DNA of 64,000 bases, from contig NC_034016.1 in NCBI RefSeq assembly GCF_000346465.2, positions 19,951,548 through 20,015,547 on the forward strand, given 5' to 3'. Source of the DNA: Prunus persica (Eukaryota; Streptophyta; Magnoliopsida; Rosales; Rosaceae). The translations under genes were made by a program, and so were the position numbers. Below the pieces are notes generated by a model. The model saw only the letters and a program-made list of their open reading frames with translations. It made no database searches and was not told the DNA's origin. Position 1 is the stretch's first letter. Each line of letters opens with the position of its first letter. Below, piece by piece: positions 17,704 through 63,222 of this stretch.

Positions 17704-18058
17704 GGCTATCTCCAGCCATGGACTATATCCCAAATATAACCCCAAATTAATGCAAAACTCATCTCCAGCCATGGGCCAAATTTGGCCCTTTAGCCCTCCA
17801 ACCGGGCCAAATGTAGCCCAGCTTTGGCCTAGGCCAAATTTATAGTGGGCCCCATCCATGTGCTTTTCAACAACCAATCATTAAAGCACTCCCCACTCCT
17901 CTTTCTGAAAATAATAAAATATGAATGACCATAAAATATAGCTCTGCATGGCTGGAGATGGAAAAATTTAGCAATGCACTATTCTTTAAAAAATTAATAT
18001 TTTGGGGGGCTAAATTTTTAGCCCTGGACTACATTTAGCCCTATGGTTGGAGATGGCC
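17704..18058. mobile_element. PIF/Harbinger-type MITE, 355 bp, TTA target duplication
   Basis: The left end is GGCTATCTCCAGCCATGG and the right end, in reverse complement, is GGCCATCTCCAACCATAGGG. TTA sits at both borders (17701-17703 and 18059-18061), the 3-bp duplication expected of PIF/Harbinger MITEs. Inside are repeated GGGCCAAAT and TAGCCC-type stretches. There is no ORF. Confidence 0.85.
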
Positions 18059-18061
18059 TTA

Positions 18062-20605
18062 AGTTTTGTGAAAACCCTTTGAAAAACTATGCAACCCTTA
18101 AGACGTGGTGTTCATCTTAAGTGAAATTACAATTATTAATCACAAGAAGCCATCGTCAATTTTGGGGAACCTTCCGACCAAAATTGCATCAAATTATTTT
18201 TCTAAAGATCCTAATGGTGATCAGGCATTAAGACAATTAGATAATTTAAAACAGTGATTAACAATTCAAAGTATGCATGCGCACACTCATAAGCAATTAA
18301 ATAAAAATTACATATTCATGCTAAGGTTCAAGGCTTCACCCTAGTAAAAGAAAATTAGTTAAGCATATTCATAATTGAAATCCAAGAAAATATCATTCGA
18401 ATGAATAAGAATGAAAACACCTGAAAGTCACAAGAACTCCAAAACCCTAGTAATTGCTCTCCACAATGTCACGTTCAAAAGCCAAAAAGAAGTCTCCCAA
18501 AGTTGCTGTGAAAACCATTAAATACTTCCTAAAACCTAGTTGCCCAATCCCCACAAGGAAACTAAGTTAAAATAAAATAATACTATGATATAAAATCCAA
18601 ATTGGATTAGGAGAATCTGACCACAATCTGCCCAGCCACGTTTTGGCCTCAAATCTCCTCCAAATCCAACCAAGATAGCTTGTTTTCAAGACAAAAAAAT
18701 ATTCTGAACACTTCTCCAGAAGGCCACGAACCCATCCGAGGTCATCTTGGGCTCCAAAAACGCAATAAAAGCCCAAAATGTCATTATTCTAGCACTGCGC
18801 ATCGCTCCTTTATTTATTCACCAGGAAAAAACTGCTTAGTAAAAAATATGAAATTTTGATACGATCAAGCTAAGTGACTCACGAACGTCCTATAACTGGA
18901 ATCACTCCAAAATTCATCCATTTGATTATGTTTTGCTCCAGATGAAATCGAAAGTCCTATATTGAAAATATAATTCAAAGTATCAAAATTCTTCCAAAAT
19001 GTTAACCAAAATATACTAAGAATGGGGTTAAATATATAATATAAAATATACCCATCAAAATACCCCCAAACTTGCTTTTTGCTTGTCCTCAAGCGAAACA
19101 AATCTAGAAAACAAACACAAAAATTAACGAACTAAAAACTTTAAATAAAACCTAGCTAAACAAAATTTCCATTCAATTTGCAATCCATAGCAAATTTTAA
19201 AAATTAGAACATCTGTTCACTAGATCCAACTAATCCCACCATAGATTCTAAGCTATTTAGAATCGATTAGAAAAGAATTCACAAACTTCCTTCGGTGTAA
19301 AGTGAACCATCATAGTTAAGGAGACTCAAGTAAAACCTTTACCCTTCATCCCTTTTATTCATACTTCACACACTTATAGAATCATTCTTCTTCTTCTTAT
19401 TTTTATTTTTATTATTATTTTTTTCCAGTAATAGTGGTGGTTGTGCAATGTTGGTTCCCTTAAGCTTTCGATTCAACCCATGTAGCGAGCTTTAGGTCAA
19501 TGACTCCCAAATCACTAAGACTTTAGGGCACTAGGCCCTAAGGACTTATTAACTCTAAGCTGAAAAGGCTACGAAACCAACCACCCTGCCTCATGCCAAA
19601 ACTCTACCGTTTGACTCAAGAATCAATGTTGATTAGGCAGGATTGGCCCGGTTACTAACAAAAAGCTTTGGGTAAGGCAATTATTACTTTATAACACATA
19701 CTAACTCTTTTTGTTTTTTTTTTGGTTTTTGGAACAAAAAATAAAATACACTGGGACAAAAAGTAAGTATTTCAATCTCACTCTCCACAAACCATGTTGG
19801 TGTGATGTGCAAATTTCAAAGTATAATTCATGAATTAACGTATAAGCAACGATAAATAGAAAAGACTCCAATGTGAGATTGATCTTCACCATGTCCATTT
19901 GTTCTAACATTTAAAATAATCTATGGATATTAACTTAAAAATGAAAATTTTTAACAAGACTAAAAAAAAAAAAAAAAAAAAAAACTCAAATCTCAAATTT
20001 ACTATCCCACTCCCAAACTTAAATCACACATTGTCCTCAAAGTGTGGAAAAGAAAATAAAGAAGTTAATAAAAATAGTAAAACCTAAAATAAAACATAAA
20101 AAATATGCGTGTGAAAATAAAGGACAATACTTAAGAAAAATTAAAATAAGAATAGAAGGGAAAGAACACATCTTGGACGCCATCTGTTGTCAAGCCTGGG
20201 CAAGTGGAATGGACGCATGGGCAAGTTGTCAAGCATGAATTGTTGTTGACTTGACATTCAATTTTTTTTATTTCGCTATGTGATTGCATGTCACTTAATT
20301 TAGTTATATCAATCTATTGTGGTAAGGTCTCATTCCTTACTGAGCAGTGGTTGCTCATCCTTTATCCTGTTTAATTTTTCAGATGAATTAGTGGGCTAGA
20401 CGAGGACTAAATCGATTGAGGTGGAATTAGATGAGAGTAGTAGAGCTTTATTTATTTCTTGTAAAGTTGTAAGATTTCAGATGTATTTTTTTAAGAGAAG
20501 TTTATTTTAAATCCTGTTTCAGCATCTTTTTATTTTATTTTAGTTTTTATTTTCTCACGCACTGGGCGCAGGGTTTCCACAGACCCCCGGATCCAGGGCG
20601 TGACA
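18062..20605 (-). repeat. Decayed LTR-retroelement-like DNA
   Basis: The segment has no host gene. On the minus strand a TGTCACGCCCTGGATCCGGG sequence starts at 20605, typical of the 5' edge of a plant LTR. It abuts Copia gag coding sequence abruptly, as an insertion would. Phrases such as ACCCCCAAACTTGCTTTTTG (about 19060) are common in non-coding parts of plant Ty3-type elements. I could not find the matching second LTR, so the element's limits are inferred. Confidence 0.35.
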
Positions 20606-21006
20606 ATAAGTGCCATCGATAAATTTCCAGAGGTCATGATCGACTAAAAAGGGTTTGAGCTGGCGGAGCCAAAGGAGATAGTTGGAGTCAATAAGCTTGG
20701 TAAAATGAGAAGAGTTGGGGCTAGGGAGGGAGATGGTGGATTCAGACGAAGCCATGAGGTGGACCTAAATGAGAAGATGATCGAATAAGGGAGAGGGAGA
20801 AAACCCTAGGTTAGGTAGAGAATATATTTCCTTGTATTAAACTGATTATACAAAGTCCTTATTTATACTGATACATAAAATCTACTTAAGGTAGGAAATA
20901 ATATAGACATGAATACAATCCGATTTACAGCAAGAAAAACTAATTGCTAGGAGGAGATTGTGAAGTTGACTTCCGTGTGTGCTAGAAAAGGAAAGCTGCG
21001 TTAACA
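20606..21006 (-). mobile_element. Truncated Copia element: LTR and start of gag
   Basis: On the minus strand an LTR-like end TGTTAACGCAGC begins at 21006. It is followed by leader sequence and, from ATG 20755, by a gag N-terminus of the Copia type (key block LIDSNYLLWLRQLKPFL). The frame is cut at about 20606 by the LTR-like sequence of another element. Its outer end coincides with the left border of the large inverted repeat at 21007. Confidence 0.6.
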
Positions 21007-21493
21007 TTGGGACTCACAGAGGGAAGAGAGTGGCTAGAGTTTTTCCCAAAATTTTCCTCAACAAGTGTTAATTAGATAACAAAGTACGTTTAAAAGCTTT
21101 TTCCTCTTTTTATGCTTTATAAAAGCTTTCCTAGTTTTCCTGTCTATGCTAGTCTTGTTATTATGGATGTTCAGTACATGGAGAAGAGAGAGAGGGGACA
21201 TAGATTTATGCTATCCTTCGGATCTGCGGTCCCCCAACCTCAACACAACACTACATGTGAATTTCATGTTGTTTCTGTTTCTTGCTTTCTTTTATGTCAA
21301 CAACATTCCATGTGAGTGTAAATTAGTCTAAATTGGACCCATTGATGCTGATTGTGACTTTAGGTTATATATATATATATATATATATCCTTGGGATGGA
21401 TCGCCCTTCTCCATCGATAGAGATCTTCCTTAATATCTCCCTCCCTCCCTTTCTTAATTAGCATAAATTGTTGAAATATACTTAAAATCAAAC

Positions 21494-22349
21494 ATGAAAT
21501 TCTCGGAGACCATAGTTGCGAAAATCAAACATGAAATTCTCGGAGACCATAGTTGCGATGGTTTTAGGTATTGCTCTTTCCTTCAACATTGGGGGAAACA
21601 TGAGCTGCAATGCTGCTGGACAGTATGACTACTTTCAGTTTGTTCAGGAGTCTCCTTTTCTATTTTGCAAAAATATTAATGGAAAGGGATGCAACATCCT
21701 ACCTCTGCCACGGATATTTACCATTCATGGCTTGTGGCCAAGCAACTTCACACATCGTCATGAACCTTGCGTTGGTGCACAATTTAGTAGAGATGTGGAA
21801 TATCTATCATACATAAATACACATATTGAGAATAATGCATGCAACTTTTGTTATGTTTCTCGTGTTTTGTTTAGTTTACTTTTGGTTTTAGTTTTTTGGT
21901 GCTTTTTTGGCATGAATGCGCGAAATGATATTGAATTTTTCTTTGCCATTGTTAATAGATGAATGAAGCCTCCAATGATGAATTGCGAGCTGATCTGGAG
22001 TTGTCATGGCGAAGCTTCATCAGTGGGCGGTCAAATATGGACTTCTGGGAATATGAATACAACACACACGGCAAGTGCTCCGACCACAAGTTTTGGCAGA
22101 CGCGCCAGGAGTTTGTAGAAGCAATACAAACCTCATGCTCTATTTTCTAATCGCTTGCTTGAACCAGGCAAGTCATATAGTTTTACTGGCCTTGAACAAG
22201 CCATCCGATCATTTATAGGCGGGAGCAGACCTCTTCTCCTTTGCAAGCAATCCAGTCGGGGGGAACACTATTTGCTGGAAGTCGTAATTTGCTTTGATAA
22301 CAGAGCAATTAATCCAGTGAATGTGATCCACAATCACCTGTGTACGTAG
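21494..22349 (+). pseudogene. S-RNase-like T2 ribonuclease, left-arm copy, broken
   Basis: A T2/S-type RNase with one intron in the hypervariable region: exon 1 from ATG 21531 to the donor after AGAGAT, exon 2 from the acceptor ending at about 21960. Visible are the signal peptide, a C1-like YDYFQFVQ block, catalytic site I FTIHGLWPSN and catalytic site II FWEYEYNTHGKC. Three defects are seen. A 37-bp tandem duplication across the start codon makes an out-of-frame first ATG at 21494. The site II lysine next to the catalytic histidine is replaced by threonine. About 14 bp present in the other copy are missing near 22102, causing a frameshift and a stop at 22148-22150. The C-terminal third survives in another frame up to 22349. 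Confidence 0.88.
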
Positions 22350-22708
22350 CTATGTGACGCGATGAACTAATCGTGACCATGATCGTAATGCTTAATTTGC
22401 AGTCTGTGTTATATATAATCTATGTTTTGATTTCTTAATGCACATCCCCATATAGTTTTGCAACAGGCATAGTCATCATGTTTATCTGGAAATGGAAAAT
22501 CATATATGAATTTCATGCATATATCAATTAATACATACAAAAAATGAAAACTCTTGTACGTACAGTGAGAAAAAGATGAGAATTTTCTTTCTAAAAAATC
22601 AGTGCTTTTCATTAGTTGTTAGAAATTAGAAGCTTGGATCATAATGTTGTATCAAACTCGTGTACATGACACACTAAGAAATTCTATATTGCCAGATTTT
22701 CTCATCTC

Positions 22709-24017
22709 TCAAGTTTGTTGCCTCCCAAGACCTATCGAAACTATACTATTCACATAAACAATTGGCGGATCCAGATTCGACATACAAATTTGTATAGTAG
22801 GAAGAGACATTCGGTTTTCGGTGCGGAGGTTATAGCAGATTGTGCATCCATCTTTGTCAACCACAAGAAGCTCATCGCTTTTCCAGAGTGCCAATGCCCA
22901 TCCGCCCTCCCTGAGGTCCATTATGGGGATCGATGCGAGCTCAAAACCTGCGTGTTTTGTCCAAACACAAGCACCAAAATCATCATCCATCAGCCACATT
23001 CCAAAGTATGGACTAACATCATAACTGTAATGCCAAACACAAAGAGCTATGGAAGATTCATTCCACACTGTAAGCCGCACGAAAAGCCCAAAAAAAGTTG
23101 TATCATGGTCTAGCAGCTCATTTGGTAACGCTACCTCATCACTCATGTCAAACGAAACCATCACTTGCCTAATCTTTTCTTCATATCGCATTTCCTCCAC
23201 ATCCACGAATTCCTTTTGTTGCTCAGATCCCAACCAATAACACATCCCCTTCAAGTGTATCTGGAACCTTTCAGGCCAAAGGAAAGTAGTTTCTGTTTCC
23301 AAAGAGTAAGTCTTGATCTCTCTCCAAGAAGAAGATTCTTCACTACTTCCCAGCGTGTATACTTGTACTCTCAGAGGATAAATAACCACAGAATATAATG
23401 TATGAGCATGCCTTTGCGAACCATAAAATATAATGTTAACAACTTTATAAGCTTTAGATATAGGATCATACCCAAATCCCATGGCCCATTCGAGCCGATA
23501 ATCTAATGGTAGATACGGGGCACGCTGCTGATCTAGGGACTCCCAATCCGTAAAGTATTTCTCCTAGGGAAGAAGCTTGAATTCCTGAATTGCCGGATTC
23601 CACAAAAACACCTTACTATAATTATCTACGTGTACACAAATGATTCCATGACAATGGCCTACAATCCTAAGTTCTTCACCACCACTCATTACACTCATAG
23701 AAACTGGAACATTGATGTCCTCCACCCTAGACAATAGAAAACTATGCGCACCACCATCTACATCCTCGCAAAAAGTAAGCACTGAGAACACAGATTCGGT
23801 CTCGCTAGCATTCGGATCCTTATTAGGGACTAATCGCTTCAAAAAGATTGATTGATTGTTGTGCAAGCAATTGGAGAGCTGGTTGCCTACGAACCTGGGA
23901 TTGTTGATCAACGCATACCCATTTGGCCGCACACTTGAATCGCATAAGGGATTTCGGAGGTAGACTTGATAGAATTTTTACCAATAAATCTTCCCCAATT
24001 TTGCAACTGTGTGCCAT
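22709..24017 (-). pseudogene. SLF/SFBB-type F-box gene, left-arm copy, broken
   Basis: Read on the minus strand from ATG 24017, the gene starts with an F-box (DLLVKILSSLPPKSLMRFKC) and continues with the F-box-associated region typical of S-locus F-box proteins (GFGYDPISKAYKVV, IYLKGMCYW/IHLKGMCYW, ALWKSDELLVVD, IVYVNSI). Compared with the intact right-arm copy it has a 2-bp deletion near 23917-23922, which shifts the frame after about 34 residues, and a TAG at 23564-23566 replacing a serine codon. The last 257 codons are open but have no start of their own. It is convergent with the RNase remnant about 360 bp away. Confidence 0.88.
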
Positions 24018-24373
24018 TATTTCAGCTACATATATGTCTCAACCCTTTCCGTCTTTTACCTCTTCTTCTTTTGCGCACACAAACAGGAAATAACAAAACA
24101 ACACCCAGGTGAAACATGAGGAAAAATTATCATATCTGTATTATATATAAATCAAAGAGTAAAAACAACGTAAGACTTTCTAAAGTGTAATCCACAGAGA
24201 AAGTTCGATTAACATCGTATTCAGAATAACAAATATTAAAAGGGATTAAAGTATACCAAACCATATTAAACATTACAAAGAAAAATAGGTATATATAGTT
24301 ACCTTATAATGAGTGGGAAGAGGAACATAGCAAATATACAATGGAAAGAAGCAAATTTAAGGTTTGATCATGG

Positions 24374-24376
<3 letters not shown>

Positions 24377-24432
<56 letters not shown>
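24377..24432 (+). repeat. (GA)n microsatellite in the F-box promoter
   Basis: About 56 bp of GA repeats upstream of the left-arm F-box pseudogene, where the right arm has only a short CTCTCTCTC run. Reading frames through it code for Arg-Glu or Leu-Ser repeats and are not genes. Confidence 0.95.
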
Positions 24433-24435
<3 letters not shown>

Positions 24436-24659
24436 GCGGCAGTAAATCCGGATCTGTTCTCCCCAAAATTGGTGTCCTCATCATTTGTCTCTGCTTGACA
24501 TGTGTTCTTCACTTTGATTGTATATATATGAATGTGTGTATGATATTTACGGTTAATAGCATGAAATAGATACATAACTTGCACATCACATCGCTAATAT
24601 TTTCAACAATAAAATATAATAATTTCGATATTCTTATTGAAAGAATTCAATCAATTGTC

Positions 24660-25330
24660 CATGGCACAATAGGAAAAAATATTACCAGATTTTCTCATCT
24701 CCCAAGCTTGTTGCCTTCCTCCCAAGACAGAAACTATGTATTCACAGGTCCATTATATTCTTCAGTAATTAGATTTTTTTAATGGATCATAATAGGGTGG
24801 AACTCTTCGAATAGGAAGACACGTACGGTTTTTGGTACGCAGGTTATAGCAAATTGTACATCCATCTCCGTGAACCACACAATGCCAATGCCCAATCCAA
24901 CCGCCTGAGGTCCATTATGGGGCTCAGTTCAAAATCCAAGTGTTTTCTCCAAACACGCTTGGCAATGGCAACGGCAACGGCAACGGCAACATCATCCATC
25001 AGCCACATTCCAAATGATTCAAAACCATTACTATCATTCCTACGCACGCAAGCCACAAAGACCAATGCAATCATTCCACCTTACTATAATCAGCTGACTA
25101 TATTCACTTCAACCTAACAGGAGAAAGTCATGTCTGGAAATGGAAAATCTAAATATATGTTTTGCATCTTATATTAATGCAAGTTTAACTATATATATCT
25201 TGATCATCAACAACTACAATATAGAAAACCCTCCTTGTTCATCTTTACAAAGAAAATGTCAACTAGGATAAGTGGGAAGACGCGAAATTAAGGTTCGATC
25301 ATGGCATGAGGGAGAGAAATGCTGCGCTGC
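24660..25330 (-). pseudogene. Rearranged F-box unit in the spacer
   Basis: On the minus strand, 25283-25330 repeats the F-box promoter/leader module (GATCATGGCATGAGGGAGAG on the plus strand). About 24797-25075 carries scrambled F-box-associated coding pieces (ALVF.CVRRND, FGMWLMDD, IMDLR, LALCG). About 24685-24750 matches the 3' end. Sequence at 25125-25230 resembles the spacer between RNase and F-box in the right arm. Most of the coding sequence is deleted and a (GGCAAC)n run lies at about 24961-24990. It is clearly non-functional. Confidence 0.7.
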
Positions 25331-26148
25331 GAGTGAGAGAGCTTGAGCTGTGGAGGGGGCAGAGAGGCGAATGTCTCTTTTGTCTGTAAGGTGTTTTGTA
25401 GGAGGGATTTTGTCTTTATGGGAAGGTCTAAATATAACCCCCTCCTGCTGACTTGATCCACCATAAAGAATTTCATCCCAGCAATCCCCTCTTTCGTCAT
25501 ATATTTTAACTGTATAAAGAAAATACAAAAAAGGAAGAGTTTGAATAAAGAAGAAAAAAACCCTAGCAGCTGCCGAACCCCACTCGACAGTCACTCAACC
25601 CCGATAACCGGCACCCTCTGCTCCTTCTCTCTCCTCGTGATGTGATGTGATCCCACATCAGAGAGAGAGAGAGAAGTGGGGAGGGATAGTCTTTGTTGGG
25701 GTTGGCAAATTACCAGAGAATGGGGAGTAACCATTGCATATTTGCATGTTGATAGTGTGTTTTTGGCTTTCTAGCGTTCTTGTGTGAAGAGATCAACCTA
25801 TATATCCCCAACCTGAAATACTCACCCATCGAATTCCTTAACCTCATTGATAAAAAAGAAAATATCTAAAAATACTCAATCTTATACTGAATATGTAGTA
25901 GAACTCGATCCCCTTTGGAACAATTTTCTTTTCTAATTATCTGCAATATTCAAAATTCGTTGACAACAACTATAGCCTCTAAACTTGCTTTCAAACAATT
26001 TCAATTAGGATCGAACTATGCAGGTGGTGTGTTATGTAATGACATACACAAAACACCAACAGAGTACATCAGTGTCACCATAAGAGAAAAAGGAAAATAT
26101 AAAATAAGAATTATATTCATAATGTAATTATAAAGAGAATCAAGGGAT

Positions 26149-29100
26149 CTATTTCTTCAGTGCTTTAACCGCTTTCTCGGCAGCATCATCCAGATCTTCT
26201 GCTGTAATTAAAGCCATTCCACTTTCCTGCACAGCCATTAACGAACTGTAAAGTTTCTAATATACATTCTGAATATATTTTCCATGAATGACTTTTTTTT
26301 TTCTTTACTTTCATGTATTAGGATCCCAAATTTCTAATTGTTACCTTCAGAATTCTCTTTCCTTGGTCAACATTGGTGCCTTCGAGACGAACGACCACGG
26401 GCACTTCTAGTTTAACCTTGAACATGGATGAACAAAAGTTAATGCTCCTTCCTTAGTGGAATTTTTTTTTTCCCAAAATTCATCTCCCAGCAGTAATTAA
26501 CCAAATTATTTCAATCTCCTTCTTAAGCACAATCCAAAGTGATATCAAGTAAAATGAAACCACCAGGAAATAATTTGCCAAAACATGGCAATTAATTGGA
26601 GAATCACCTGTTTAGCAGCATTGACGATTCCACTTGCAATCACATCACATTTCATTATTCCACCAAAGATATTCACCAAAATGGCTTTCACTTTCTCATC
26701 AGAAGTCAGAATCTTAAATGCCTCAACAACCTGTTTCACATAATTTAAAATTAGAGAAACAGAAAGAAATTTGAGTTTCTTATGTGCTATAAATCAGTCA
26801 TATTCTTTAACAGAGAAGTGTACAACCAATAACAAAAACTGGGATTCGGCTTTAGCACTCAGACATGCATGTGCACATTGCGCAAAGAGCATCCTCAATT
26901 TTTTAACAAACTAGTGAACCATCTTAAACCCAAAGCCACATTCAAATTGAGATATAAAACGGATCCTGATATCAAAGAAGTAAAGAATAAAGCTGAAAAA
27001 GAAAAAGACTCGATGACAACAGCGGGGAAAAAAAGTCCAACAAGCAGTTCATTCATTTCCTATCACTCCATCATTACCTGGTTTTCGGAAGCATTTCCGC
27101 CTACATCGAGAAAATTGGCAGGAGTTCCCCCGTGTAATTTAATGATATCCATTGTAGCCATAGCTAATCCTGCACCATTCACCATGCAACCAATTTCCCC
27201 ATCTAATCCAATATAATTCAAATCTACTTTGGCAGCAGCCACCTGTCAGTAGGTAAAAGGCACCAGAGCAAATAAGTAAACACCAAAAAAGATTGTTATC
27301 TACCACAAAGAACTTCACATTCAAGTTGTGCACGCTTAACTTTAGACACAGCGCGTCCTGTTGTAAATGTATCAGATAACATTCAACTACCTAGATAAAG
27401 CATCTCCAACAAACAAACTCATGGGTGGCAGCTGGGCTTTACTATAACAATGAAATATTATACCCAGTAGACAATATGGGAACTTTCATTGGCCCCGTTA
27501 TTCCTCCATTCCTGTTGGGAGTGGGGATCAGGAACGCCTATTAAAAGCTGACAAAGGTTCGCTAGGTATCTCGGGGCCCCACCTTCCTCCACCCCTATAA
27601 AGGGCAGGTCTAAACCTGCCCAACCCAGATCATGATTTTAAACAAAAAATTCCGTTACAGATCAACATAAGATGTGTGAGAATAGCTGCTTGTAGCAAAA
27701 ATCCTCACCAAATTTGGAATGCACATGTTGCACATACATATAAACCAAAAAAAATTTAAATCTGTACAGGAAGGCGGGAAAAGGAAAGAAAAAAAATAAA
27801 AATTGAAATACATTAAAAGGTAGAGCCCAAAAACCCTAAACAATTAGAAATGAAATTCAAGTCTACAAAGGAAGATGGGGTGGTAAGTGGCAACAGAACT
27901 GCAACGAATGGTACTAATCAGCTGTAAAAGTGGTCAAACACAAGGATAATTAACCAAACCTCTCGAGGATCCTCTTGTGTTGGATCACGAAGAGCAAATA
28001 TCTCTTTCTGACGAAAAGCAGCGTTATCATCAAAGTTCAACTTGGCATCAGCAGCTACTAGCTGGTTATCAGAAGTCTCTGCAAGTGGATTGATCTGTCC
28101 AAAAATCAAGGGTCAGATAGGTAAAATGGAAGGAGGGGAAGTGGCTAAACAGTACAATTACTTTAACCTAAAAATTATGCTCACTTCCAGAAGTGTGCAG
28201 TCAGTCTCACTGAATAGCTTATATAATTTCTTCACTTGATCGATTGAACTACTTCTATCGGCCACTTTAGGAGCCAAACCATCAACAACCTTTGCGGCAT
28301 CTTCATCTGTAATTCCAGTGAAAACATCGACAGGTACCTATCGACCATAGAATAAGAAAACAAAAGTAAGAAGATACTAGTTAAATCACAATACCAAAGA
28401 GGAAAGAGTAGTTGCTAAAACAGAAAAATAAAAGATAAGGCTAAGTACCTTTATTATCTGATCAGGGAATTTCTCAGCAAGGTCTTCAATGCTTGTTCCT
28501 CCCTTTGCACAGGCAATTATAAGCTGAAAAATGGATATCAAAATATGCATCTTAATTCAGGAAGCTCACTTTGAAGAAAACTTACATTAACAAAGACATA
28601 GGAAAATAAAATAGGTAATTTGCACCAGACAAAGATAATGAAGTCAGTTTGAGAACATACTGGGCCAGCAGTTTTGCGATCCAGAGTGATAGCAAAGTAC
28701 ATCTCATTGACAAGCGACAACTTTTGGCACAAATAAACCTGTACAGGCAAAAGTTAGAAACCAAATTATAAGTAAAAAATTTATAGTGCTGATGTGTATG
28801 TTCAAGAAAGTTTGAGGCTTGGAACTCCTTAGCACCAAGTTTTATTAAATATAAAATAAAAATGAAAATTTGGAATCCTCAGCAACAAGGATTCCAAACT
28901 TTAACATAAAAATGAAAGTTTGGGAACTAACATGTATTGAATGCTACAAGTTAATATAAATGTACAATATGAAACAAAGTGCAATGCCAACCTTGCTGAC
29001 AATTTTTCCCTGAGGACCTGTTTGCTTGGTAACAAGAATCTGACCAAGCATCTTGCCTGCAAGAGAAGTACAAAATTGAAATAAAGAAGAGCACCAAAAG

Positions 29101-30408
29101 GAGAAAGCAGCATCACATCTTAGAAAGCAGCAACTTCCAGAATCATACAGAACAATAAATGTACAAAAGACTACCACAACATACTATTGTAAACTAACAT
29201 GCATGCATTGCTAGAGGCATTGTAATCAAACGTATCAAGCTGGGGTGTGATAGAGTTATTTCTATGAGAGCCAATGTTGGTATGCCCAGAGATAACTTTA
29301 AGAAAACAAAAACGCCAGGGAAACATTCTCATATAATAAAGATGGTTTTTAGTACCAGCGATATCTTCAACTTGGTCAGCCGGGACAATGTGAACACCAC
29401 CCTTAAGACCATTTTTAAAGGTTCCCAAGCCTCTTCCACCAGCCAAAACTTGGCTTTTAACTACCAACTGCACCAAAATCCAAGTTAGGATTGCCCCTTT
29501 TTGAACACTAAGCTAGTTTGCTAAAAAAAAAAAAGATATAACAGTATTCCAACTTTTACTTTTTCAGCCATTGAAATATGAAGATAAATTATCCTCAAAT
29601 CAGACATAAAGTTTTGTCCTGGAAAAGAAAACGAATATTGCTATGAATAATTCTTTTTTCTCGGTTTGATCAGCAACATAGAATAGTGCTTGTCTTCTTG
29701 TCAAAATAAACCTGAATATGAAAAGACCATGATTTCCAATAATTACCTCACTTTCCTTGGGGAATACATCCTGAATTGCCCTTTTGACTTCATCGACGGA
29801 TGCAACGGCAGCACCTTTCGGAACATTAACCCCATATTTGCTCATCAAATCAGCCCCCTGGTTTCAGCCAAAGTGCAAGGCATTCATCCTCAAAATTCAA
29901 ACAACATTCTCACTCTCGCACAGAAGTATAACCAACAACTAGAATGATGTAATGTGACTCGAAGATGTACACCATTCTCATAAATGAAAAAAAAAAAAAA
30001 CAGACATTTGGCACATAATTCTATACATGTATATTTCAAAATTTTGAAGTTTTTTTTTTTGTTGCACAGGAAGACAATTTTTGAGGGATGAAAATTTTCA
30101 CTGATCACTACTATTAACTTTAAACAAATGTATTAAATTAATCAAAGACAACAAAATAACTATGAAACATATAAACAAATCATAAAACGAAAAATTGTGT
30201 TCTTGACCCTCCAGAGTTTCTGGAGAATTAAAAGAGAAACAGATCAGCTACATATGAAAGTTCGAATTTGATTGTAAGTGTGAGCGAAATATGCAGAGAG
30301 AGAGACCTGATATTCGTGGATGTTGAGGCGGCGGAGCTGTTGCTGCTGCCATTTTCCGGCGATAGAGAGAGAACGAGAGGTAAGCTGCTTCAGTAATCCT
30401 CTCACCAT
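26149..30408 (-). CDS. Succinyl-CoA ligase [ADP-forming] beta subunit, mitochondrial
   Basis: This TCA-cycle enzyme converts succinyl-CoA and ADP/Pi to succinate, ATP and CoA, as an alpha-beta complex in the mitochondrial matrix. Twelve exons on the minus strand: 30408-30307, 29857-29747, 29467-29356, 29056-28992, 28738-28661, 28523-28449, 28337-28185, 28094-27960, 27242-27078, 26730-26608, 26416-26345 and 26226-26149. They sum to 1269 bp, 422 aa, matching the plant family. The N-terminus is a basic presequence ([19 protein letters not shown]), followed by the LNIHEYQ start of the ATP-grasp domain, [60 protein letters not shown] and the [10 protein letters not shown] region. No lesion is visible. 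The gene sits in the spacer of the S-locus-like inverted repeat. Confidence 0.96.
27602..27621. other. Short perfect hairpin inside an intron of the succinyl-CoA ligase gene
   Basis: GGGCAGGT and ACCTGCCC form an 8-bp perfect stem with a CTAA loop. The surrounding intron part (about 27400-27640) is more GC-rich than the rest and may be an old insertion. No function is claimed. Confidence 0.4.
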
Positions 30409-30463
30409 TGTTTAAAGCTCTCAAACCCTAAAGCAACAACTAGAGAGAGAGACGCACACAGCG

Positions 30464-30466
<3 letters not shown>

Positions 30467-30512
<46 letters not shown>
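30467..30512. repeat. (GA)n microsatellite in the 5' region of the succinyl-CoA ligase gene
   Basis: About 46 bp of GA repeats roughly 60 bp upstream of the start codon, probably in the 5' UTR or core promoter, as GAGA/CT tracts often are in plant genes. Confidence 0.9.
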
Positions 30513-30515
<3 letters not shown>

Positions 30516-31418
30516 CGTTTGCCGGACGCAGAGGCGATTTTTCTTTTTTGGACGCAGAGGCGATTGGGTCTGAGAATGCGAAAGAACCCCTACCCTAGTG
30601 CATTTTCTTTTTTAATATTCTTTTGACCCGTTTTAGGCATTTTATGATTTTCATTTTGTTTTTCTTTTCTTATTTTATGTGAGCCAATAGATCGGCGCCG
30701 CGTCATAGATCTCCGGTTCCTGTTTTTTTTTTTTTTTTCAGACTTTCAAAACCTGTTACTATGAATGAACCGGTTCTCAGTTTGATCCCAATGTCCCATT
30801 TACTTGTTGGTAAAATTTCAAGCTTAAAAATCACAAGGGTTGTGCGATTGGTAAACTGTTATTTTCAATTAGCGAGTTATTTAGTGTCTCAATGACAAGA
30901 GTTTGAAACTCATTGGAAGCACTTTGTGGTCAGAAACAAGTCAAAACACGATCGGAGATAATCTCACTCTTCGGATGTGGGGACACCTAGTAATATTTAT
31001 CAATTTTTTTTTAAAAAAAATCAAGCTTAAAAAATGTGTATGCCCATAACGGGCTAGTATTGTAGTTCAAGTGTATTTACTCTTGCATTTGATGTCCTAG
31101 ATTCGAGTTACCTCTCCTAATATCAATTGAATAAAACAAACAAAAAAACATAGACACACCATAAAATATATGGCACCATTGAACTGTGATACAATCGTGC
31201 AAAAATAATGTTGTAAATTAAATTTAGATGATATTTTTTCATAATCTATTTTTTTTAAGGCTTTTTATGGCTCCACTTTCTGAACAGCCAGAACAACAAT
31301 AGGCTATAGCAATGGAAATGTAGGAAAAGTTCAAGGTTTTTAATGATATTAGTGATATATCAATTGATATCACACATAGATTAATACATTAAATTCTAAA
31401 AAAAGGACTAATATATTA
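30513..31418. other. Intergenic, with a dispersed-repeat fragment
   Basis: No gene. CATTGGAAGCACTTTGTGGT (about 30912) and flanking sequence recur in reverse orientation near 37955, so a short dispersed repeat is present here. Confidence 0.5.
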
Positions 31419-31681
31419 GGGCCCGTTTGATAACTATTTCAATTTTAGTTTTTAGTTTTTACTTTTTGTGCTAGAGTATAGACGAAAAAGAGAGTGAGAA
31501 TGGAAGTGAGGATGACATTGAGAAAGAGGATGAGAGGGAGGAGTAACAAAAGTGAAAAAAAATTTCATCTCATCTTCTCTCTCAATCCCATCTCTACTCT
31601 TATTCTCACTTCCATTCTCCCTTTTCTCTATAGATTTCAACACAAAAAATATAAAAACTAATATTGAAATTGTTATCAAAA
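31419..31681. mobile_element. MITE with GGGCCCGTTTGATAAC-type end
   Basis: The left end GGGCCCGTTTGATAACTATT and the right end ATTGTTATCAAA form imperfect inverted termini around GTTTGATAAC. Purine-rich and pyrimidine-rich subterminal stretches are complementary to each other, so the whole can fold back. It has the same architecture as the split copy at 7830-8897. The right terminus is degenerate. Confidence 0.6.
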
Positions 31682-31721
31682 TTGTTAGTTCAATTTGAGA
31701 ACAACATATACAGACTTAGTA

Positions 31722-31724
<3 letters not shown>

Positions 31725-31771
<47 letters not shown>

Positions 31772-31835
31772 CTTTGATCAGGCCTTAATTTTGCTTCTTC
31801 CCATTGTATATTTGCCATGTTCCTTTTCCCTAGTT
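31725..31835 (+). repeat. Extra copy of the F-box promoter module with (CT)n
   Basis: A (CT)n tract (31727-31768) is followed by a sequence that parallels 31985-32065, including a near-identical ATTGTATATTTGCCATGTTCC. The module is thus duplicated in tandem upstream of the intact F-box gene. Related copies lie at about 24300-24460 and 25283-25330 (reverse) and 37690-37790 (forward). Confidence 0.65.
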
Positions 31836-32358
31836 TTTTTGTTTTTTTTTGTTTTTAATGTTTAATTTTGTCAGGTAATTTCTTTTTTGAATAACAAATT
31901 CCAGCGCGCGGTAGGTTGAGGGACATATGTCAAGCAGAGACACAGGGGAACGCCAATTTTGGAGAGAACAGATCCGGAATCACTGCTGCATTTCTCTCTC
32001 TCATCCCATGATCAAACCTTAAATTTGCTTCTTTCCATTGTATATTTGCTATGTTCCTCTTCCCACTCATTATAAGGTAACTATATATACCTATTTTTCT
32101 TTGTAATGTTTAATATGTTTTGGTATACTTTAATCCCTTTCAATATTTGTTATTCTGAATACGATGTTATCGAACTTTCTCTGTGGATTACACTTTAGAA
32201 AGTCTTACGTTGTTTTTACTCTTTGATTTATATATAATACAGATATGATAATTTTTCCTTATGTTTTAACCTGGGTGTTGTTTTGTTATTTCCTGTTTGT
32301 GTGTGCAAAAGAGGTAGAAGACGGAAAGGGTTGAGACATATATATATAGCTGAAATTA

Positions 32359-33681
32359 ATGGCACACAGTTGCAAAATTGGGGAAGATTTATTGGTAAAA
32401 ATTCTAACAAGTCTACCTCCAAAATCCCTTATGCGATTCAAGTGCGCGGCCAAATGGTGGTATGCGCTGATCAACAATCCCAGGTTCGTAGGCAATCAGC
32501 TCTCCAATTGCTTGCACAACAATCAATCAATCTTTTTGAAGCGATTAGTCCCTAATAAGGACCCGAATGCTAGCGAGACCGAATATGTGTTCTCAGTGCT
32601 TACTTTTTGCGAGGATGCAGATGGTGGTGCGCATAGGTTTCTGTTGTCTAGGGTGGAGGACATCAATGTTCCAGTTTCTATGAGTGTAATGATTGGTGGT
32701 GAAGAACTTAAGATTGTAGGCCATTGTCATGGAATCATTTGTGTACACGTAGATAATTATAGTAAGGTGTTTTTGTGGAATCCGGCAATTCAGGAATTCA
32801 AGCTTCTTCCCTCAGAGAAATACTTAACGGATTGGGAGTCCCAAGTTTATCCGCGTGCCCCGTACCTATCATTAGGTGATCGGCTCGGATGGGCCATGGG
32901 ATTTGGCTATGATCCCATATCTAAAGCTTATAAAGTTGTTAGCATTATGTTTTATGGTTCGCAAAGGCATGCTCATACATTATATTCTGTGGTAATTTAT
33001 CCTCTGAGAGTACAAGTGTACACGCTGGGAAGTAGTGAAGAATCTTCTTCTTGGAGAGACATCAAGACTTACTCTTTGGAAACAGAAACTACTTTCCTTT
33101 GGCCTGAAGGTTTCGAGATATACTTGAAGGGGATGTGTTATTGGTTGGGAACTGAGCAACAAAAGGAATTCGTGCATGAGGAGGAAATTCGATATGAAGA
33201 AAGGATTAGGCAAGTGATGGTTTCGTTTGACATGAGCGATGAGGTGTTTGATGAGGTAACGTTACCAGATGAGCTGCTAGACCATGAAAGAACTTTTTTA
33301 GGGCTTTTCATGCTGCTTACAGTGTGGAATGAATCTTCCATTGCTCTTTGTGTTTGGCATAACAGTTGTGATGTTAGTCCATACTTTGGAATGTGGCTGT
33401 TGGATAATGATTTTGGTGCTTGTGTTTGGACAAAACACGCAGGTTTTGAGCTCACATCAATCCCCATAATGGACCTCAGGGAGGGCGGATGTGTATTGGC
33501 ACTCTGGAAAAGCGATGACCTTCTTGTGGTTGACGAAGATGGATGCACAATCTGCTATAACCTCTGCACCGAAAACCGAATGTCTCTTCCTACTATACAA
33601 GTTTGTATGACGAATATGGATTCGCCAATTGTTTATGTGAATAGTATAGTTTCGATAGGTCTTGGGAGACATCAAACTTGA
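32359..33681 (+). CDS. SLF/SFBB-type F-box protein, intact, 440 aa
   Basis: A single-exon F-box gene starts at ATG 32359, the counterpart of the broken left copy's start. The F-box is at about residues 7-45 (DLLVKILTSLPPKSLMRFKC) and should bind SKP1-like adaptors in an SCF ubiquitin ligase. The rest is the F-box-associated region of the S-locus type: HCHGIICV, VFLWNPAIQEFKLLP, GFGYDPISKAYKVV, IYLKGMCYWLG, FGMWLLDNDFGACVWTK, LALWKSDDLLVVD and a C-terminal IVYVNSIVSIG. Known SLF/SFBB/SFB proteins are expressed in pollen and recognise S-RNases. Intronless structure and order of motifs fit; at 440 aa it is somewhat longer than most. No stop or frameshift is seen. Pollen expression and the RNase target are inference. 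Confidence 0.85.
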   Translation: MAHSCKIGEDLLVKILTSLPPKSLMRFKCAAKWWYALINNPRFVGNQLSNCLHNNQSIFLKRLVPNKDPNASETEYVFSVLTFCEDADGGAHRFLLSRVEDINVPVSMSVMIGGEELKIVGHCHGIICVHVDNYSKVFLWNPAIQEFKLLPSEKYLTDWESQVYPRAPYLSLGDRLGWAMGFGYDPISKAYKVVSIMFYGSQRHAHTLYSVVIYPLRVQVYTLGSSEESSSWRDIKTYSLETETTFLWPEGFEIYLKGMCYWLGTEQQKEFVHEEEIRYEERIRQVMVSFDMSDEVFDEVTLPDELLDHERTFLGLFMLLTVWNESSIALCVWHNSCDVSPYFGMWLLDNDFGACVWTKHAGFELTSIPIMDLREGGCVLALWKSDDLLVVDEDGCTICYNLCTENRMSLPTIQVCMTNMDSPIVYVNSIVSIGLGRHQT

Positions 33682-33749
33682 GAGATGAGAAAATCTGGCA
33701 ATATAGAATTTCTTAGTGTGTCATGTACACGAGTTTGATACAACATTAT

Positions 33750-33942
33750 TGTTGAAGAATACACAAGTTCCACATCGGAAACTTAACAAAATAGAAAGTC
33801 TCGTATAATAAATGGTTTCACTCCTAATAAAATCGAGGCCTTTTGTATAAAACCCCACACCTGTTAAACAGATGGTTAAGTTGGGGACAATATCGATGTT
33901 GCTAGTGGTGGGCCAAGAGTCCGTCCCTCTAAAATCTTAACA
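33750..33942. mobile_element. Solo LTR, 193 bp, ATTAT target duplication
   Basis: The sequence begins TGTTGAAGAATACAC and ends ATCTTAACA, so the ends are TGTT/AACA. ATTAT flanks both sides (33745-33749 and 33943-33947). It carries a TTCCACATCGGAAAC stretch often seen in plant LTRs. The homologous place in the left arm (about 22639-22652) has one ATTAT equivalent and no insertion. It therefore arrived after the arms were duplicated. Confidence 0.85.
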
Positions 33943-34346
33943 ATTATGATCCAAGCTTCTAATTTCAAACAACTAATAAAAAGCACTGATTTTTTAAGAA
34001 AGAAAATTCTCATCTTTTTCTCACTGTACGTATGTACATTCTAGTTGATGACCAAAAGAGATATAATTAAACTTGTAGTTGATTGACATTTGCATGCAAC
34101 TCATATAAGATTTTCCATTTCCAGACAAACATGATGACTATGCCTGTTGCAAAACTACATAGGGATGTGCATTAAGAAATCAAAACATAGATTATATATA
34201 ACACAGACTGCAAATTAAGCATTACAATCATGATCATGATTATTTCATTGCGTCACATAGCTACGTACCCATTAATTCATAGATTATATATTCCATCCTT
34301 ATTAGATTTATATCAATATAGCTTAATTCACCCTTCTACCTATAGG

Positions 34347-34460
34347 CTATAGCATATACCATACAGGTGATTGTGGAAGACATTCTTTTGACATCCTCTT
34401 GGGACAATTCACTGGATTAATTGCTCTGTCATCAAAGCAAATTACGACTTCCAGCAAATA
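34347..34460 (-). pseudogene. Read-through remnant of the S-RNase-like C-terminus
   Basis: Directly after the TAA of the RNase, the same frame remains open for about 37 codons. It contains the conserved C5-like block LLEVVICFD and two further cysteines (NCPKR, KECLP). This is the part lost by the early stop. It shows that the stop is recent or that read-through or splicing around it has been tolerated. Confidence 0.65.
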
Positions 34461-35231
34461 TTATTTTGTCTTCTTCTTGTTCTTCTTCCTCTTAGATTGC
34501 TCGCAAAGGAGAAGAGGTCTGCTCCCGCCTATAAATGATCGGATGGCTTGTTCAAGGCCAGTAAAACTATATGACTTGCCTGGTTCAAGCGAGCGATTAG
34601 AAAATAGAGCATGAGGTTTGTATTGCTTCCACAAACTCCTGGCACGGTCGAAGTATTGCGTCTGCGAAAACTTGTCGTCGGAGCACTTGCCGTGTTTGTT
34701 GTATTCATATTCCCAGAAGTCCATATTTGACCGCCCACTGATGAAGCTTCGCCATGACAACTCCAGATCAGCTCGCAATTCATCATTGGAGGCTTCATTT
34801 ATCTAATAACAATGGCAAAGAAAAATTAAATATCATTTCGTGCATTCATGCCAAAAAAAACATCAAAAAACTAAAACCAGAAGTAAACTAAACAAAACAC
34901 GAGAAACATAACAAAAGTTGCATGCATTATTCTCAGTATGTGTATTTATGTATGATAGATATTTCACATCTCTACTAAATTGTGCACCAACGCAAGGTTT
35001 ATGACGATGTGTGAAGTTGCTTGGCCACAAGCCATGAATAGTAAATATCCGTGGCAGAGGTAGGATGTTGCATCCCTTTCCATTAATATTTTTGCAAAAT
35101 AGAAAAGGAGACTCCTGAACAAACTGGAAGTAGTCATACTGTCCAGGAGCATTGCAGCTCATGTTTCCCCCAATGTTGAAGGAAAGAGCAATACCTAAAA
35201 CCATGAAAACTATGGTCTCCAAGAATTTCAT
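34461..35231 (-). CDS. S-RNase-like T2 ribonuclease, right-arm copy, altered C-terminus
   Basis: Exon 1 (35231-34968) and exon 2 (34802-34461) join across one phase-0 intron in the hypervariable region, as in rosaceous S-RNases, giving 201 aa. A signal peptide is followed by YDYFQFVQ, catalytic site I FTIHGLWPSN and site II FWEYEYNKHGKC, with the two histidines, the glutamate and the lysine all present. Near the end, the left copy's short stretch is replaced by an A/G-rich insertion encoding a lysine-rich tail (SKRKKNKKKTK) and a TAA at 34461-34463. Beyond that stop the frame is open to TAG 34347-34349 and would code for the usual C-terminal region with its cysteines (LLEVVICFD). It is either a truncated basic RNase or an early pseudogene. 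Confidence 0.75.
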
Positions 35232-35796
35232 GTTCGATTTTAAGTATATTTCAACAATTTATGCTAATTAAGAAAGGGAGGGAGGGAGATATTAAGGAAG
35301 ATCTCTATCGATGGAGAAGGGTGATCCATCCCAAGGATATATATATATATATATATATATAACCTAAAGTCACAATCAGCATCAATGGGTCCAATTTAGA
35401 CTAATTTACACTCACATGGAATGTTGTTGACATAAAAGAAAGCAAGAAACAGAAACAACATAAAATTCACATGTAGTGTTGTGTTGAGGTTGGGGGACCG
35501 CAGATCCGAAGGATGGCATAAATCTATGTCCCCTCTCTCTCCGCTCCATGTACTGAACATCCATAACAACAAGACTAGCATGGACAGGAAAACTAGGAAA
35601 GCTTTTATAAAGCATAAAAAGAGGAAAAAGCTTTTAAACATACTTTGTTATCTAATTAACACTTGTTGAGGAAAATTTTGGGAAAAACTCTAGCCGCTCT
35701 CTTCCCCCTGTGAGTCCCAAAAAAAAACTCCGTAGAGGGGGAGGAGTAAGAAGCATCATTGCCTCATGCCCCATTTAGGCATGAGAGGGAGAAGAC

Positions 35797-36720
35797 ATAC
35801 TTTACGGATTGGTAGTCCCTAGTTCAGCAGCGTGCCCCTTATCTACCATTAAATAATCGGCTCGCAAGTGCCACGGGATTTGGCTATGATCCTATATCTA
35901 AAGCTTACAAGGTTGGTAGCGTCATATTTTATGGTTCGCAAAGGCATGCTCATACAAAATATTCTGTGGTTATTTATCCTCTGAGAGTACAAGTGTACAA
36001 GTTGGGAAGTAGTGAAGAATCTTCTTCTTGGAGAGAGATCAAGACTTACTCTTTGGAAACATAAACTACTTTCCTTTGGCCTGAACATTTCGAGATATAC
36101 TTGAAGGGGATGTGTTATTGGTTGGGAACTGAACAACAAAAGGAATTCGTGGATGACAAGGAAACTCGATATGAAGATTAGGCAAGTGATGGTTTCGTTT
36201 GACATGAGTGATGAGGTAGCATTACCAGATGAGCTGCTAGACCATGATACTACTTTTTTTGAGCTTTTCATGCGGCTTACAGTGTGGAATGAATCTTCCA
36301 TTGCTCTGTGGTTGGCATAGCAGTTGTGATGTTATTACATATTTTGGAATGTGGCTGATGGATGATGATTTTGGTGTTTGTGTTTGGACAAAACACGCGG
36401 GTTTTGAGCTCACATCGATCCCCATAATGGACCTCATGGAGGACGGATGGGCATTGGCACTCTGGAAAAGCGATGAGCTTCTTGTGTTTGACATACATGG
36501 ATGTACAGTCTGCTATAACCTCCGTACCAAAAACCTAAGGTCTCTCTTCCTACTTTTCAAATTTTTATGTGGAATCCGCCGATTGTTTATGTGAATTGTA
36601 TAGTTTCAATAGGTCCTGGGAGGCAACAAAGCTTGAGAGATGAGAAATTCTGGCAATAGAATTTCCTAGTGTTTCATGTACTGTTGTACACGAGTTTAAT
36701 ACAACAATATTTTTCCAATA
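35797..36720 (+). pseudogene. 5'-truncated F-box copy outside the right arm
   Basis: Similarity to the intact F-box gene starts abruptly at about codon 155 of that gene (TTTACGGATTGG) and runs to the 3' end and 3' flank. In-frame stops (TAG just after the start of similarity, a TAA near 36062), deletions near 36177 and 36310 and frame changes are present. Recognisable pieces include FGMWLMDDDFGVCVWTKHA and ALWKSDELLVFD. It lies 76 bp beyond the palindrome border. Confidence 0.8.
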
Positions 36721-37627: not shown

Positions 37628-38340
37628 CCTCCATTATAGGTTGAAGACACATGTCATGCAAAGATAGGCAGACATCGATTTTGGGAAGAACATATCCGAA
37701 TTCAATGCTGTATTTCTCTCTCTCATTCCATGATCAAACCTTACCTTAAATTTTGTTTCTTTCCATTGTATATCTGTTTGTTTCAAATTATTTTTTATTT
37801 TCAATTTTGCTTGAGGAATAGCAAAAGATAAGCTTGGGGGTATTTGATAAGTCAATATTTTATATATATTTTATGTCTCTCTTTTTGGTAAATACCACGA
37901 GGTGTCCCCACACCCGAAGGGTTGGATTAATCCCCATTCAGGGTTCGGCTTGCCCCTGACCACAAAGTGCTTCCAATGGGTTTACTTATTTATTTGTTAA
38001 TTTCCTTGGATTAAATTGGTTGTTTTAATTTGTTGTGTGAGATTTGTGAAGTAATTGTGAAAAAACTTTGAATGCCAGGTCAGTTTTCCACCTCATTATC
38101 CCAAACCAATAGGATACTGCCACATGCCAATCTTTTTTGAAAACTTTTTGATGATTCAATTGATTTTCCATTTCCATATTATGAAGAATATAAGGGACCT
38201 GTTGTTTATGTGAATAGTATAGTTTCTGTCTTGGAAGGGAACAAGTTTGAGAGCTGAGAAAATCTGGCAATAGAATTTCCTCATGTGTCATGGACAAGTG
38301 TTTGATACAACATTTTCTATTGATGCTGCAAAGATGAAGA
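37628..38340 (+). pseudogene. F-box unit with its coding region deleted
   Basis: About 37640-37790 matches the F-box promoter/leader module (CTCTCTCATTCCATGATCAA). About 38200-38320 matches the 3' end of the gene and its flank (TTTATGTGAATAGTATAGTT, GAGAAAATCTGGCAATAGAA). Almost all of the coding sequence between them is gone and unrelated sequence, including a dispersed repeat near 37900-37985, lies in its place. Confidence 0.65.
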
Positions 38341-63103: not shown

Positions 63104-63222
63104 TGTTTGGTCTGAATCACAGCAGCTTCTCTTCTCAGATGTTCAGCTGAGCTTCGATTGAGCTCAGTAAACTTCACAGTTTTCACGCCCAGATCAAGAG
63201 ACCCAACCTGGCTCTGAGGCCA

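What the first reader, a model, noticed from the sequence alone, without database searches (positions are those of the whole stretch)
21007..35720. Palindromic S-locus-like cassette: S-RNase-like plus SLF/SFBB-like genes in two inverted arms
Each arm has an S-RNase-clade T2 RNase and an S-locus-type F-box gene in convergent orientation, the same two-component pairing that makes up the self-incompatibility locus of Rosaceae. The arms are ~3.5 and ~3.8 kb, about 7.4 kb apart, and match in inverted order. Seen: the motifs, gene order and arm borders. Known: RNase plus F-box linkage defines the S locus. Inferred: a duplicated, decaying paralogue of that locus.
Basis: partly seen in the sequence, partly recalled or inferred. 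Interest (0 to 1): 0.88.

Follow-up and report, generated by a model that had tools for sequence, protein, structure and literature searches.

The report
Decaying mirror-image self-incompatibility relic in peach
Peach chromosome 8 carries an old spare copy of the gene pair that lets related trees reject their own pollen; the copy has been doubled in mirror image around an ordinary gene and is falling apart, so it is a known kind of genomic relic with some new details.

Summary
In peach (contig C8:19951548-20015547), two inverted arms (21007-24386, 31993-35720; 153 differences in 3326 aligned bases) each carry a T2 RNase and a convergent F-box gene, 7.6 kb apart. The F-boxes sit in the SLFL clade, not with apple/pear SFBB (AU p 4e-5) or SFB (p 0.005).

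The right-arm RNase corresponds to a published gene ("S-RNase lineage 1", ppa024151m, with a neighbouring F-box), so the locus is known. I saw no report of its inverted doubling, lesions or extra F-box remnants.

Both RNases are broken: the left by a frameshift and a lost motif lysine, the right by a stop that removes its C-terminus. The left F-box is broken; the right is open, but its changes look neutral. Apricot holds L-type and R-type sequence, one gene being a mosaic, so both types predate the peach-apricot split and later mixed. A succinyl-CoA ligase gene fills the spacer. A 2022 paper explains peach self-compatibility by a reactivated S-like locus; if this one is meant, its RNase genes argue against that.

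The parts
21007..24386 (+). Left arm of the inverted repeat
31993..35720 (-). Right arm of the inverted repeat
   Evidence: further inner-end homology at 31727-31830 and 31917-32002
21531..22333 (+). Left T2 RNase pseudogene: exon 1 21531-21794, exon 2 from 21959. Lesions relative to the right copy: 37-bp tandem duplication over the start, lysine lost in the second active-site motif (THG for KHG), 14-bp deletion (frameshift), 25 bp missing near the C-terminus
   Evidence: family matches
34461..35231 (-). Right T2 RNase: exon 1 35231-34968, exon 2 34802-34461, ends at a premature in-frame stop after residue 201; homology to longer orthologues continues to about 34350. Listed as ribonuclease S-2 [Prunus persica], 193 aa, with another exon 1 end
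22709..24017 (-). Left F-box pseudogene, frameshifted near codon 33 and with an in-frame stop at 23564-23566; its C-terminal part is held in the protein database as P0007 (257 aa)
32359..33681 (+). Right F-box gene, open, 440 aa, SLFL-type
35774..36632 (+). Third F-box copy, 3' part only (13 stops in the one frame counted)
24708..25050 (-). Older F-box remnant (42-65% protein identity pieces)
   Evidence: DNA match
37637..38314 (+). Probable fifth F-box remnant: upstream-like piece 37637-37782 and 3'-end-like piece 38202-38314, most of the coding region gone
   Evidence: no protein match at E 1e-3
33750..33942 (+). 193-bp LTR-like repeat with 5-bp target duplication, in the right arm only; many genome copies
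26152..30408 (-). Complete-looking 12-segment succinyl-CoA ligase beta subunit gene in the spacer (exon borders not all checked)
20606..21006 (.). Dispersed repeat whose copies run to the left arm border

Best explanation
A relict S-like locus. An ancient copy of the S-locus gene pair (a secreted class III T2 RNase made in the pistil, and an SLFL-type F-box protein that would feed such RNases to an SCF ubiquitin ligase) sits on peach chromosome 8. A block holding one RNase and one F-box gene was later copied in inverted orientation on the other side of a succinyl-CoA ligase gene. The two-copy state predates the split of peach and apricot, and the copies have since exchanged sequence. In peach neither arm can now encode a complete RNase, one F-box is dead and three more are fragments; the right F-box is open and either drifts or keeps a minor role unrelated to self-recognition. 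Shown here: the arms, gene order, lesions, kinship to the chromosome 6 S locus, and both sequence types in apricot. Inferred: the ancestral pistil/SCF function, loss of RNase activity, gene conversion as the cause of the mosaic, and that apricot's two copies are also inverted.
For: Arms and gene order. Kinship: F-box, (82 places listed; six lie in the window, and the best of the others are on C6 at 28.18-28.38 Mb); RNase, (10 places: 5 in the window, 2 on the C6 S2-RNase, 1 on C5, 2 on class I genes on C1). Trees: searches (52 rows: window F-boxes in one clade with peach S-locus SLFL1, 28283 and 28334 at 97/92; sister to apple/pear P0009-P0012 at 100/99; 16 rows: with Malus P0125 96/90, Rosa P0126 80/76; class I apart 100/99), clade tests. 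Identity with the published locus: ppa024151m at scaffold_8:19241555-19242552 maps to window about 32536-36008 if the shift of ppa009963m on the same scaffold holds; that stretch holds the right RNase and not the left. Decay. Neutral-looking right F-box: 6 synonymous and 27 non-synonymous changes unique to R in 283 codons. Age and exchange: apricot P0001 matches L at 16 of 19 informative sites up to codon 265 and R at 19 of 23 after it (permutation p 1.5e-4).
Against: The order of the window RNases among S-RNases is unresolved in my 16-row tree, and the Malus relative P0125 is acidic (pI 5.9), unlike S-RNases. The F-box has stayed open at 440-442 aa in peach, apricot and cherry, which hints at constraint and sits uneasily with the neutral ratio. 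No expression data for peach were available; the P. mume orthologue is reported as expressed in pistil and buds (PMC4438004). In one search the split at 265 was chosen after seeing the data (the permutation test scans all splits), and the clades were named after the tree was seen. That the palindrome itself, rather than two copies, is shared with apricot was not tested.
Confidence: 0.88

Rival explanations
1. The locus is a working, reactivated S-like locus that interferes with the true S locus and so makes peach self-compatible, as proposed for peach in PMC9250077 (route c).
For: [quoted passage not shown] The right F-box is open. The P. mume orthologue is reported as expressed in pistil and buds.
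Against: In this assembly the left RNase is frameshifted and lacks the motif lysine; the right one ends before the last conserved strand and cysteines that longer orthologues keep. The true SFB on C6 lies in two frames here, enough on its own by the usual account. The text I read does not say which peach locus is meant.
Confidence: 0.04
2. An unrelated defence-type T2 RNase and an ordinary F-box gene happen to be neighbours; no S-locus kinship.
For: F-box genes are numerous in this genome (82 places, a lower bound). The nearest listed Rosa relative of the RNase is named ribonuclease MC-like, and the Malus relative is acidic.
Against: Genome-wide, both genes rank the C6 S-locus genes next. The RNase is basic (pI 9.5 as truncated, 9.1 for the cherry orthologue), has one intron in the hypervariable region, and lacks the class I/II CPS..G motif seen in the C1 genes. 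The pair is adjacent in cherry too, to judge by consecutive locus tags and one contig length (P0008/P0122).
Confidence: 0.03
3. The second arm is an assembly artefact (allelic copy placed in inverse).
For: The arms are 92-97% identical over most of their length, and only one assembly was read.
Against: The arms differ by 4.6% and by nine indels of 8 bp or more. L-type and R-type states are both seen in apricot, and two apricot F-box proteins have one contig length (P0001, P0006). The peach reference is called a doubled haploid (start of the abstract of PMC4046826, listed).
Confidence: 0.02
4. The RNases are dead but the right F-box was kept for another job, for example as a general remover of foreign RNases in pollen, so the locus is partly alive.
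For: Open at 440-442 aa in peach, apricot P0001 and cherry P0002. SLFL proteins of the peach S locus are reported to act on S-RNases without allele specificity (PMC5826962 passages).
Against: Changes unique to the right copy look neutral (6 synonymous to 27 non-synonymous). Its F-box domain scores below the Pfam cut-off (19.8 against 24.3 bits) while the apple relative scores above it.
Confidence: 0.15

Closest known systems
Peach S-RNase lineage 1 gene ppa024151m with neighbouring F-box ppa024694m, linkage group 8 (Aguiar et al. 2015, PMC4438004)
   Same: Same chromosome, and the mapped interval holds the right-arm RNase; basic T2 RNase of the S-lineage with an F-box gene nearby
   Different: The parts I read list one RNase and one F-box there; the second arm, the inversion, the lesions and the extra F-box remnants are not described in them
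Type-1 S-like locus, e.g. Antirrhinum hispanicum chromosome 7 (PMC8774079)
   Same: RNase linked to SLFs outside the S locus, one SLF a pseudogene, inferred degeneration
   Different: No inverted duplication is reported in the passages read; there the RNase is still expressed at a low level in styles
True peach S locus on C6 (S2-RNase, SFB, SLFL genes)
   Same: Convergent RNase and pollen F-box order (SFB plus strand, S2-RNase minus strand); the closest paralogues of both genes
   Different: Other chromosome; 35-49% (RNase, cherry orthologue as query) and 35-44% (F-box) identity; no stop in the matched S2-RNase exons
Gillenia 'Mal S-locus' segmental duplications (PMC12033343)
   Same: Repeated blocks, each with an SFBB gene and a full or partial RNase gene, bordered by repeats; gene conversion suggested
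   Different: 18-22 kb blocks, SFBB-type F-boxes, Maleae-lineage S locus; no inverted arms mentioned in the passages read

Membership tests
S-lineage (class III) T2 RNase | Ribonuclease T2 domain (PF00445) | tested here: met
   Right-arm database protein P0120 99.7 bits, cut-off 26; genome hits over the right arm and two left-arm pieces
S-lineage (class III) T2 RNase | Both active-site motifs (FTIHGLWP and KHGxC) kept | tested here: inconclusive
   Both present in the right copy; the left copy, apricot P0121 and P. brigantina P0123 have THG in the second, and the P0123 model also departs in the first
S-lineage (class III) T2 RNase | Class I/II amino-acid pattern 4 absent, basic protein, at most two introns | tested here: met
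   the peach C1 genes show CPS..G; the criteria are those of PMC4438004
S-lineage (class III) T2 RNase | Groups with S-RNases in a tree | tested here: inconclusive
   Apart from class I at 100/99, but unresolved against peach S2, Pyrus S3 and N. alata SF11 (16 rows)
S-lineage (class III) T2 RNase | Complete C-terminus with the last conserved region and cysteines | tested here: not met
   The right copy stops after residue 201; the left frame is broken
SLF/SLFL F-box family | Falls in the clade of S-locus F-box genes | tested here: met
   With peach SLFL1 and two more S-locus genes at 97/92; best genome matches outside the window at the S locus. Two other S-locus F-box genes (28263, 28376) fall outside that clade
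SLF/SLFL F-box family | F-box domain plus associated domain | tested here: inconclusive
   FBA_1 over the cut-off; F-box-like 19.8 bits, under its 24.3 cut-off; a PF08268 genome search (54 places) did not list the window copies
Pyreae SFBB | One clade with SFBB genes | tested here: not met
   13-row window clade plus 13-row SFBB clade held together: AU p 4e-5
Prunus SFB | Close to SFB at the S locus | tested here: not met
   SFB place on C6 matches only at E 7e-5; one clade rejected at p 0.005, C-terminal SFB piece only, long branch
Functional S locus | Intact RNase and intact pollen F-box at the mapped S locus | tested here: not met
   Contig C8, not C6; both RNases broken
Functional S locus | Allelic diversity, pistil and pollen expression, pollen rejection | not testable with these tools
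   One haplotype, no RNA data
Inverted repeat with arm-to-arm exchange | Sequence exchange between arms | tested here: inconclusive
   Apricot protein P0001 is a mosaic of L-type and R-type states; one predicted protein, arrangement in apricot unknown

The most novel reading that the evidence does not exclude
The mirror-image S-like locus is older than the peach-apricot split and its arms convert each other. That exchange has kept one F-box (antidote) gene open in several species after the RNase (poison) partner died, so Prunus carries an orphan antidote gene outside the S locus that could still act on S-RNases in pollen.
Probability: 0.12. Interest if true: 0.6.

Novelty: new member of a known kind. 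Interest (0 to 1): 0.4.

Why it matters
Duplicated S loci are central to models of how self-incompatibility is lost and regained. This one can be placed in time against species splits and its decay read base by base. It also bears on a printed proposal: PMC9250077 ascribes peach self-compatibility to a reactivated S-like locus. If this locus is the one meant, neither of its RNase genes encodes a complete enzyme in the reference assembly, and the ordinary cause (a broken SFB at the true S locus) is left. The mirror-image layout around a housekeeping gene, with apricot sharing both sequence types, makes it a small natural test of arm-to-arm exchange between S-locus paralogues.

Tried and rejected
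First F-box tree: the left F-box row was cut one base off frame and went in as nonsense; discarded, corrected. Six distant rows (all six flagged as long branches) and the 7-residue SFB N-terminal row were dropped, and four more Prunus rows were added. The clade test printed (p 6e-62) was badly posed: it held the two window rows with 11 SFBB rows but left out their own close orthologues and two apple rows nested in the SFBB clade. I replaced it (p 4e-5 and p 0.005); the conclusion stands, more weakly.

Codons 266-440 of R against L have 26 non-synonymous and 3 synonymous changes. Tempting as positive selection, but L is dead, the counts are small and the changes polarised by the third copy are neutral, so I reject it.

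Spacer as a captured gene fragment: rejected. Twelve exon-like segments totalling 418 residues were found. PF08442 found one place on C1 only and missed the window's own gene, so copy number stays open.

Transposon as the cause of the inversion: the repeat at 20606-21006 touches the left border and the 193-bp insert is in the right arm only. I saw no element bounding both arms, but the right flank 35721-35773 was not searched by itself; the cause is not assigned. A counterpart of the third F-box fragment left of 20606 (15001-20606): only short matches of 12-20 bases.

Papers: searched; no paper describing the inverted arms was seen in those listings or in the parts read. Morimoto et al. 2015 and Akagi et al. 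2016, the likeliest places, were not among the papers listed; I know them only through passages in PMC6450939 and PMC8774079. Supplementary files (0 look-ups allowed) were not seen, so ppa024694m was not mapped.
Full report
Where it is. The window is G000:C8:19951548-20015547 of a 227.5-Mb assembly in 192 contigs. C8 is 22,573,980 bases long, the same length as the contig given for a protein named ribonuclease S-2 [Prunus persica], which is the right-arm RNase. C6 likewise has the length (30,767,194) given for a peach F-box protein. So this is peach; the equation of C8 with chromosome 8 rests on the contig number and on the published scaffold 8 position below.

The arms. Inverted repeats 21007-24386 and 31993-35720 are real, with 153 differences in 3326 aligned bases. 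Divergence is uneven: 0.7% at 21307-21456 and 1.3% at 24157-24306, up to 16.7% at 22507-22656 between the two genes; nine indels of 8 bp or more lie inside the arms. The right arm holds a 193-bp repeat with a five-base target duplication that the left arm lacks; it has many copies elsewhere, so it came after the duplication. A dispersed repeat reaches the left border at 21006 (10 other places listed).

The genes. In each arm the RNase and the F-box gene point at each other. The RNase has one intron (164-165 bp) in the hypervariable region, with GT..AG ends; the database peach protein uses another donor (P0120). The left RNase carries a duplicated start, a frameshifting 14-bp deletion and 25 bp missing near its end, and the motif lysine before the second active-site histidine is replaced, as in apricot P0121 and P. 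brigantina P0123. The right RNase stops after residue 201, while the P. campanulata (P0122) and P. brigantina proteins read on through the last conserved strand and cysteines. Apricot P0121 as predicted is shorter still, 177 aa. The left F-box has a frameshift and a stop; the right one is open for 440 codons. A third copy (35774-36632) and an older remnant (24708-25050) are clear. A fifth (37637-38314) rests on non-coding DNA matches only. No other F-box or T2 RNase of this kind was found at E 1e-3 in the window plus 20 kb on each side (10 protein queries).

Kinship. The genome-wide ranking is the plainest test. For the right F-box, 82 places are listed; leaving out the six in the window, the best are at C6 28.18-28.38 Mb: 43% at E 2e-73, then 44%, 43%, 40%, 35%, 41%, 36%. 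An eighth C6 place and the best place outside both loci, on C3, are level at about 1.5e-17. C6 there is the S locus: it has the S2-RNase (28311599-28312521), SLFL1 (84% to P. yedoensis SLFL1-S4) and an SFB that lies in two frames. For the RNase (cherry orthologue as query) the order is window, C6 S2-RNase, C5, class I on C1. In the F-box tree (52 rows picked from the held proteins) the window genes sit in a clade with three S-locus SLFLs (97/92) and are sister to four apple/pear genes (100/99); two further S-locus F-box genes fall outside. Held together with the SFBB clade the tree is rejected at p 4e-5, with SFB at p 0.005 (groups named after the tree was seen, SFB a long branch). In the RNase tree (16 rows) the window copies group with Malus P0125 and Rosa P0126, apart from class I; their order among S-RNases is unresolved.

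Already in print. Aguiar et al. 2015 (PMC4438004; outline, passages, section 10 part 2 and section 12 read) list peach ppa024151m on scaffold 8 as an S-RNase lineage 1 gene with an F-box gene nearby, and report the P. mume lineage 1 gene in pistil and buds. If the shift of a second gene on that scaffold holds, ppa024151m falls at window about 32536-36008, over the right RNase (34461-35231) and 10 kb from the left one. Morimoto et al. [quoted passage not shown] PMC8774079 (passages) reports duplicate loci in P. mume. So the kind and the right-arm pair are known. Further papers seen in passages only: PMC7881130, PMC12033343, PMC5598434, PMC7527504, PMC5826962, PMC12403065.

Age and exchange. Silent divergence between the F-box copies is 0.055, and 0.12-0.15 to the third copy. 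I give no date, since no rate was measured here. At residues where L and R differ, apricot P0001 has the L state at 16 of 19 sites up to codon 265 and the R state at 19 of 23 afterwards; six sites where it matches neither, among the 48, were left out (permutation p 1.5e-4). Many of the early L matches may be the ancestral state, but at four early sites (163, 177, 255, 265) the shared state occurs in no cherry row and not in the third copy; of the 19 later R matches, 13 are states absent from L and from the cherry rows (my reading of the table). The other apricot proteins, P0003 and P0006, are L-like early, and P0003 is mixed late (P0006 does not reach that part). Both types therefore existed before the peach-apricot split and were mixed later. 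Two apricot F-box proteins and the RNase P0121 share one contig length, 23,045,982. Whether apricot's copies are inverted was not seen.

Selection. Changes unique to the right F-box number 6 synonymous and 27 non-synonymous in 283 codons, as expected without constraint (p 0.83). Against that, the frame is open at 440-442 codons in peach, apricot and cherry. I lean to drift and leave a minor role open.

Spacer. The 7.6 kb between the arms holds a succinyl-CoA ligase beta gene on the minus strand: 12 segments, 418 residues, each free of stops; not every exon border was checked. Three joined pieces match a solved mitochondrial ADP-forming enzyme at E 3e-27. Recombination between the arms would merely flip this gene (inference).

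Bearing on peach self-compatibility. PMC9250077 (passages, sections 8 and 12, section 9 part 1) infers that peach lost self-incompatibility by reactivation of its S-like locus. The text I read does not name the locus. If it is this one, the RNase lesions stand against it.

Scores. Interest 0.4.

Noticed in passing
58632-63573: Copia-type retrotransposon (recalled motifs) with a 1390-aa open frame (58970-63142, minus) between two identical 351-bp repeats (58632-58982 and 63223-63573): a very recent insertion; described only
   Followed up: partly
45169-54479: Two tandem genes and a third start that look like phytochelatin synthase (recalled motif, no family search), minus strand; the repeats match at 74-79% DNA identity
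   Followed up: no
38665-42073: GMC oxidoreductase gene (long-chain alcohol oxidase-like by recall; domain), minus strand
   Followed up: partly
56902-58431: Leucine-rich-repeat protein in a single open frame of 509 codons, directly beside the Copia element
   Followed up: partly
31416-31680: About 265-bp repeat, matching itself on both strands, many copies in the genome, MITE-like
   Followed up: partly
C6:28260001-28400000 (L021-L034): True peach S locus: five open F-box genes, an SFB in two frames, S2-RNase, and Copia-like frames (recalled motifs) between SFB and S2-RNase
   Followed up: partly
P0004, P0008 (P. campanulata): One cherry F-box copy (P0004) lies on a contig of another length than the copy next to the RNase (P0008/P0122 by locus tags); perhaps a moved copy or another assembly
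   Followed up: no
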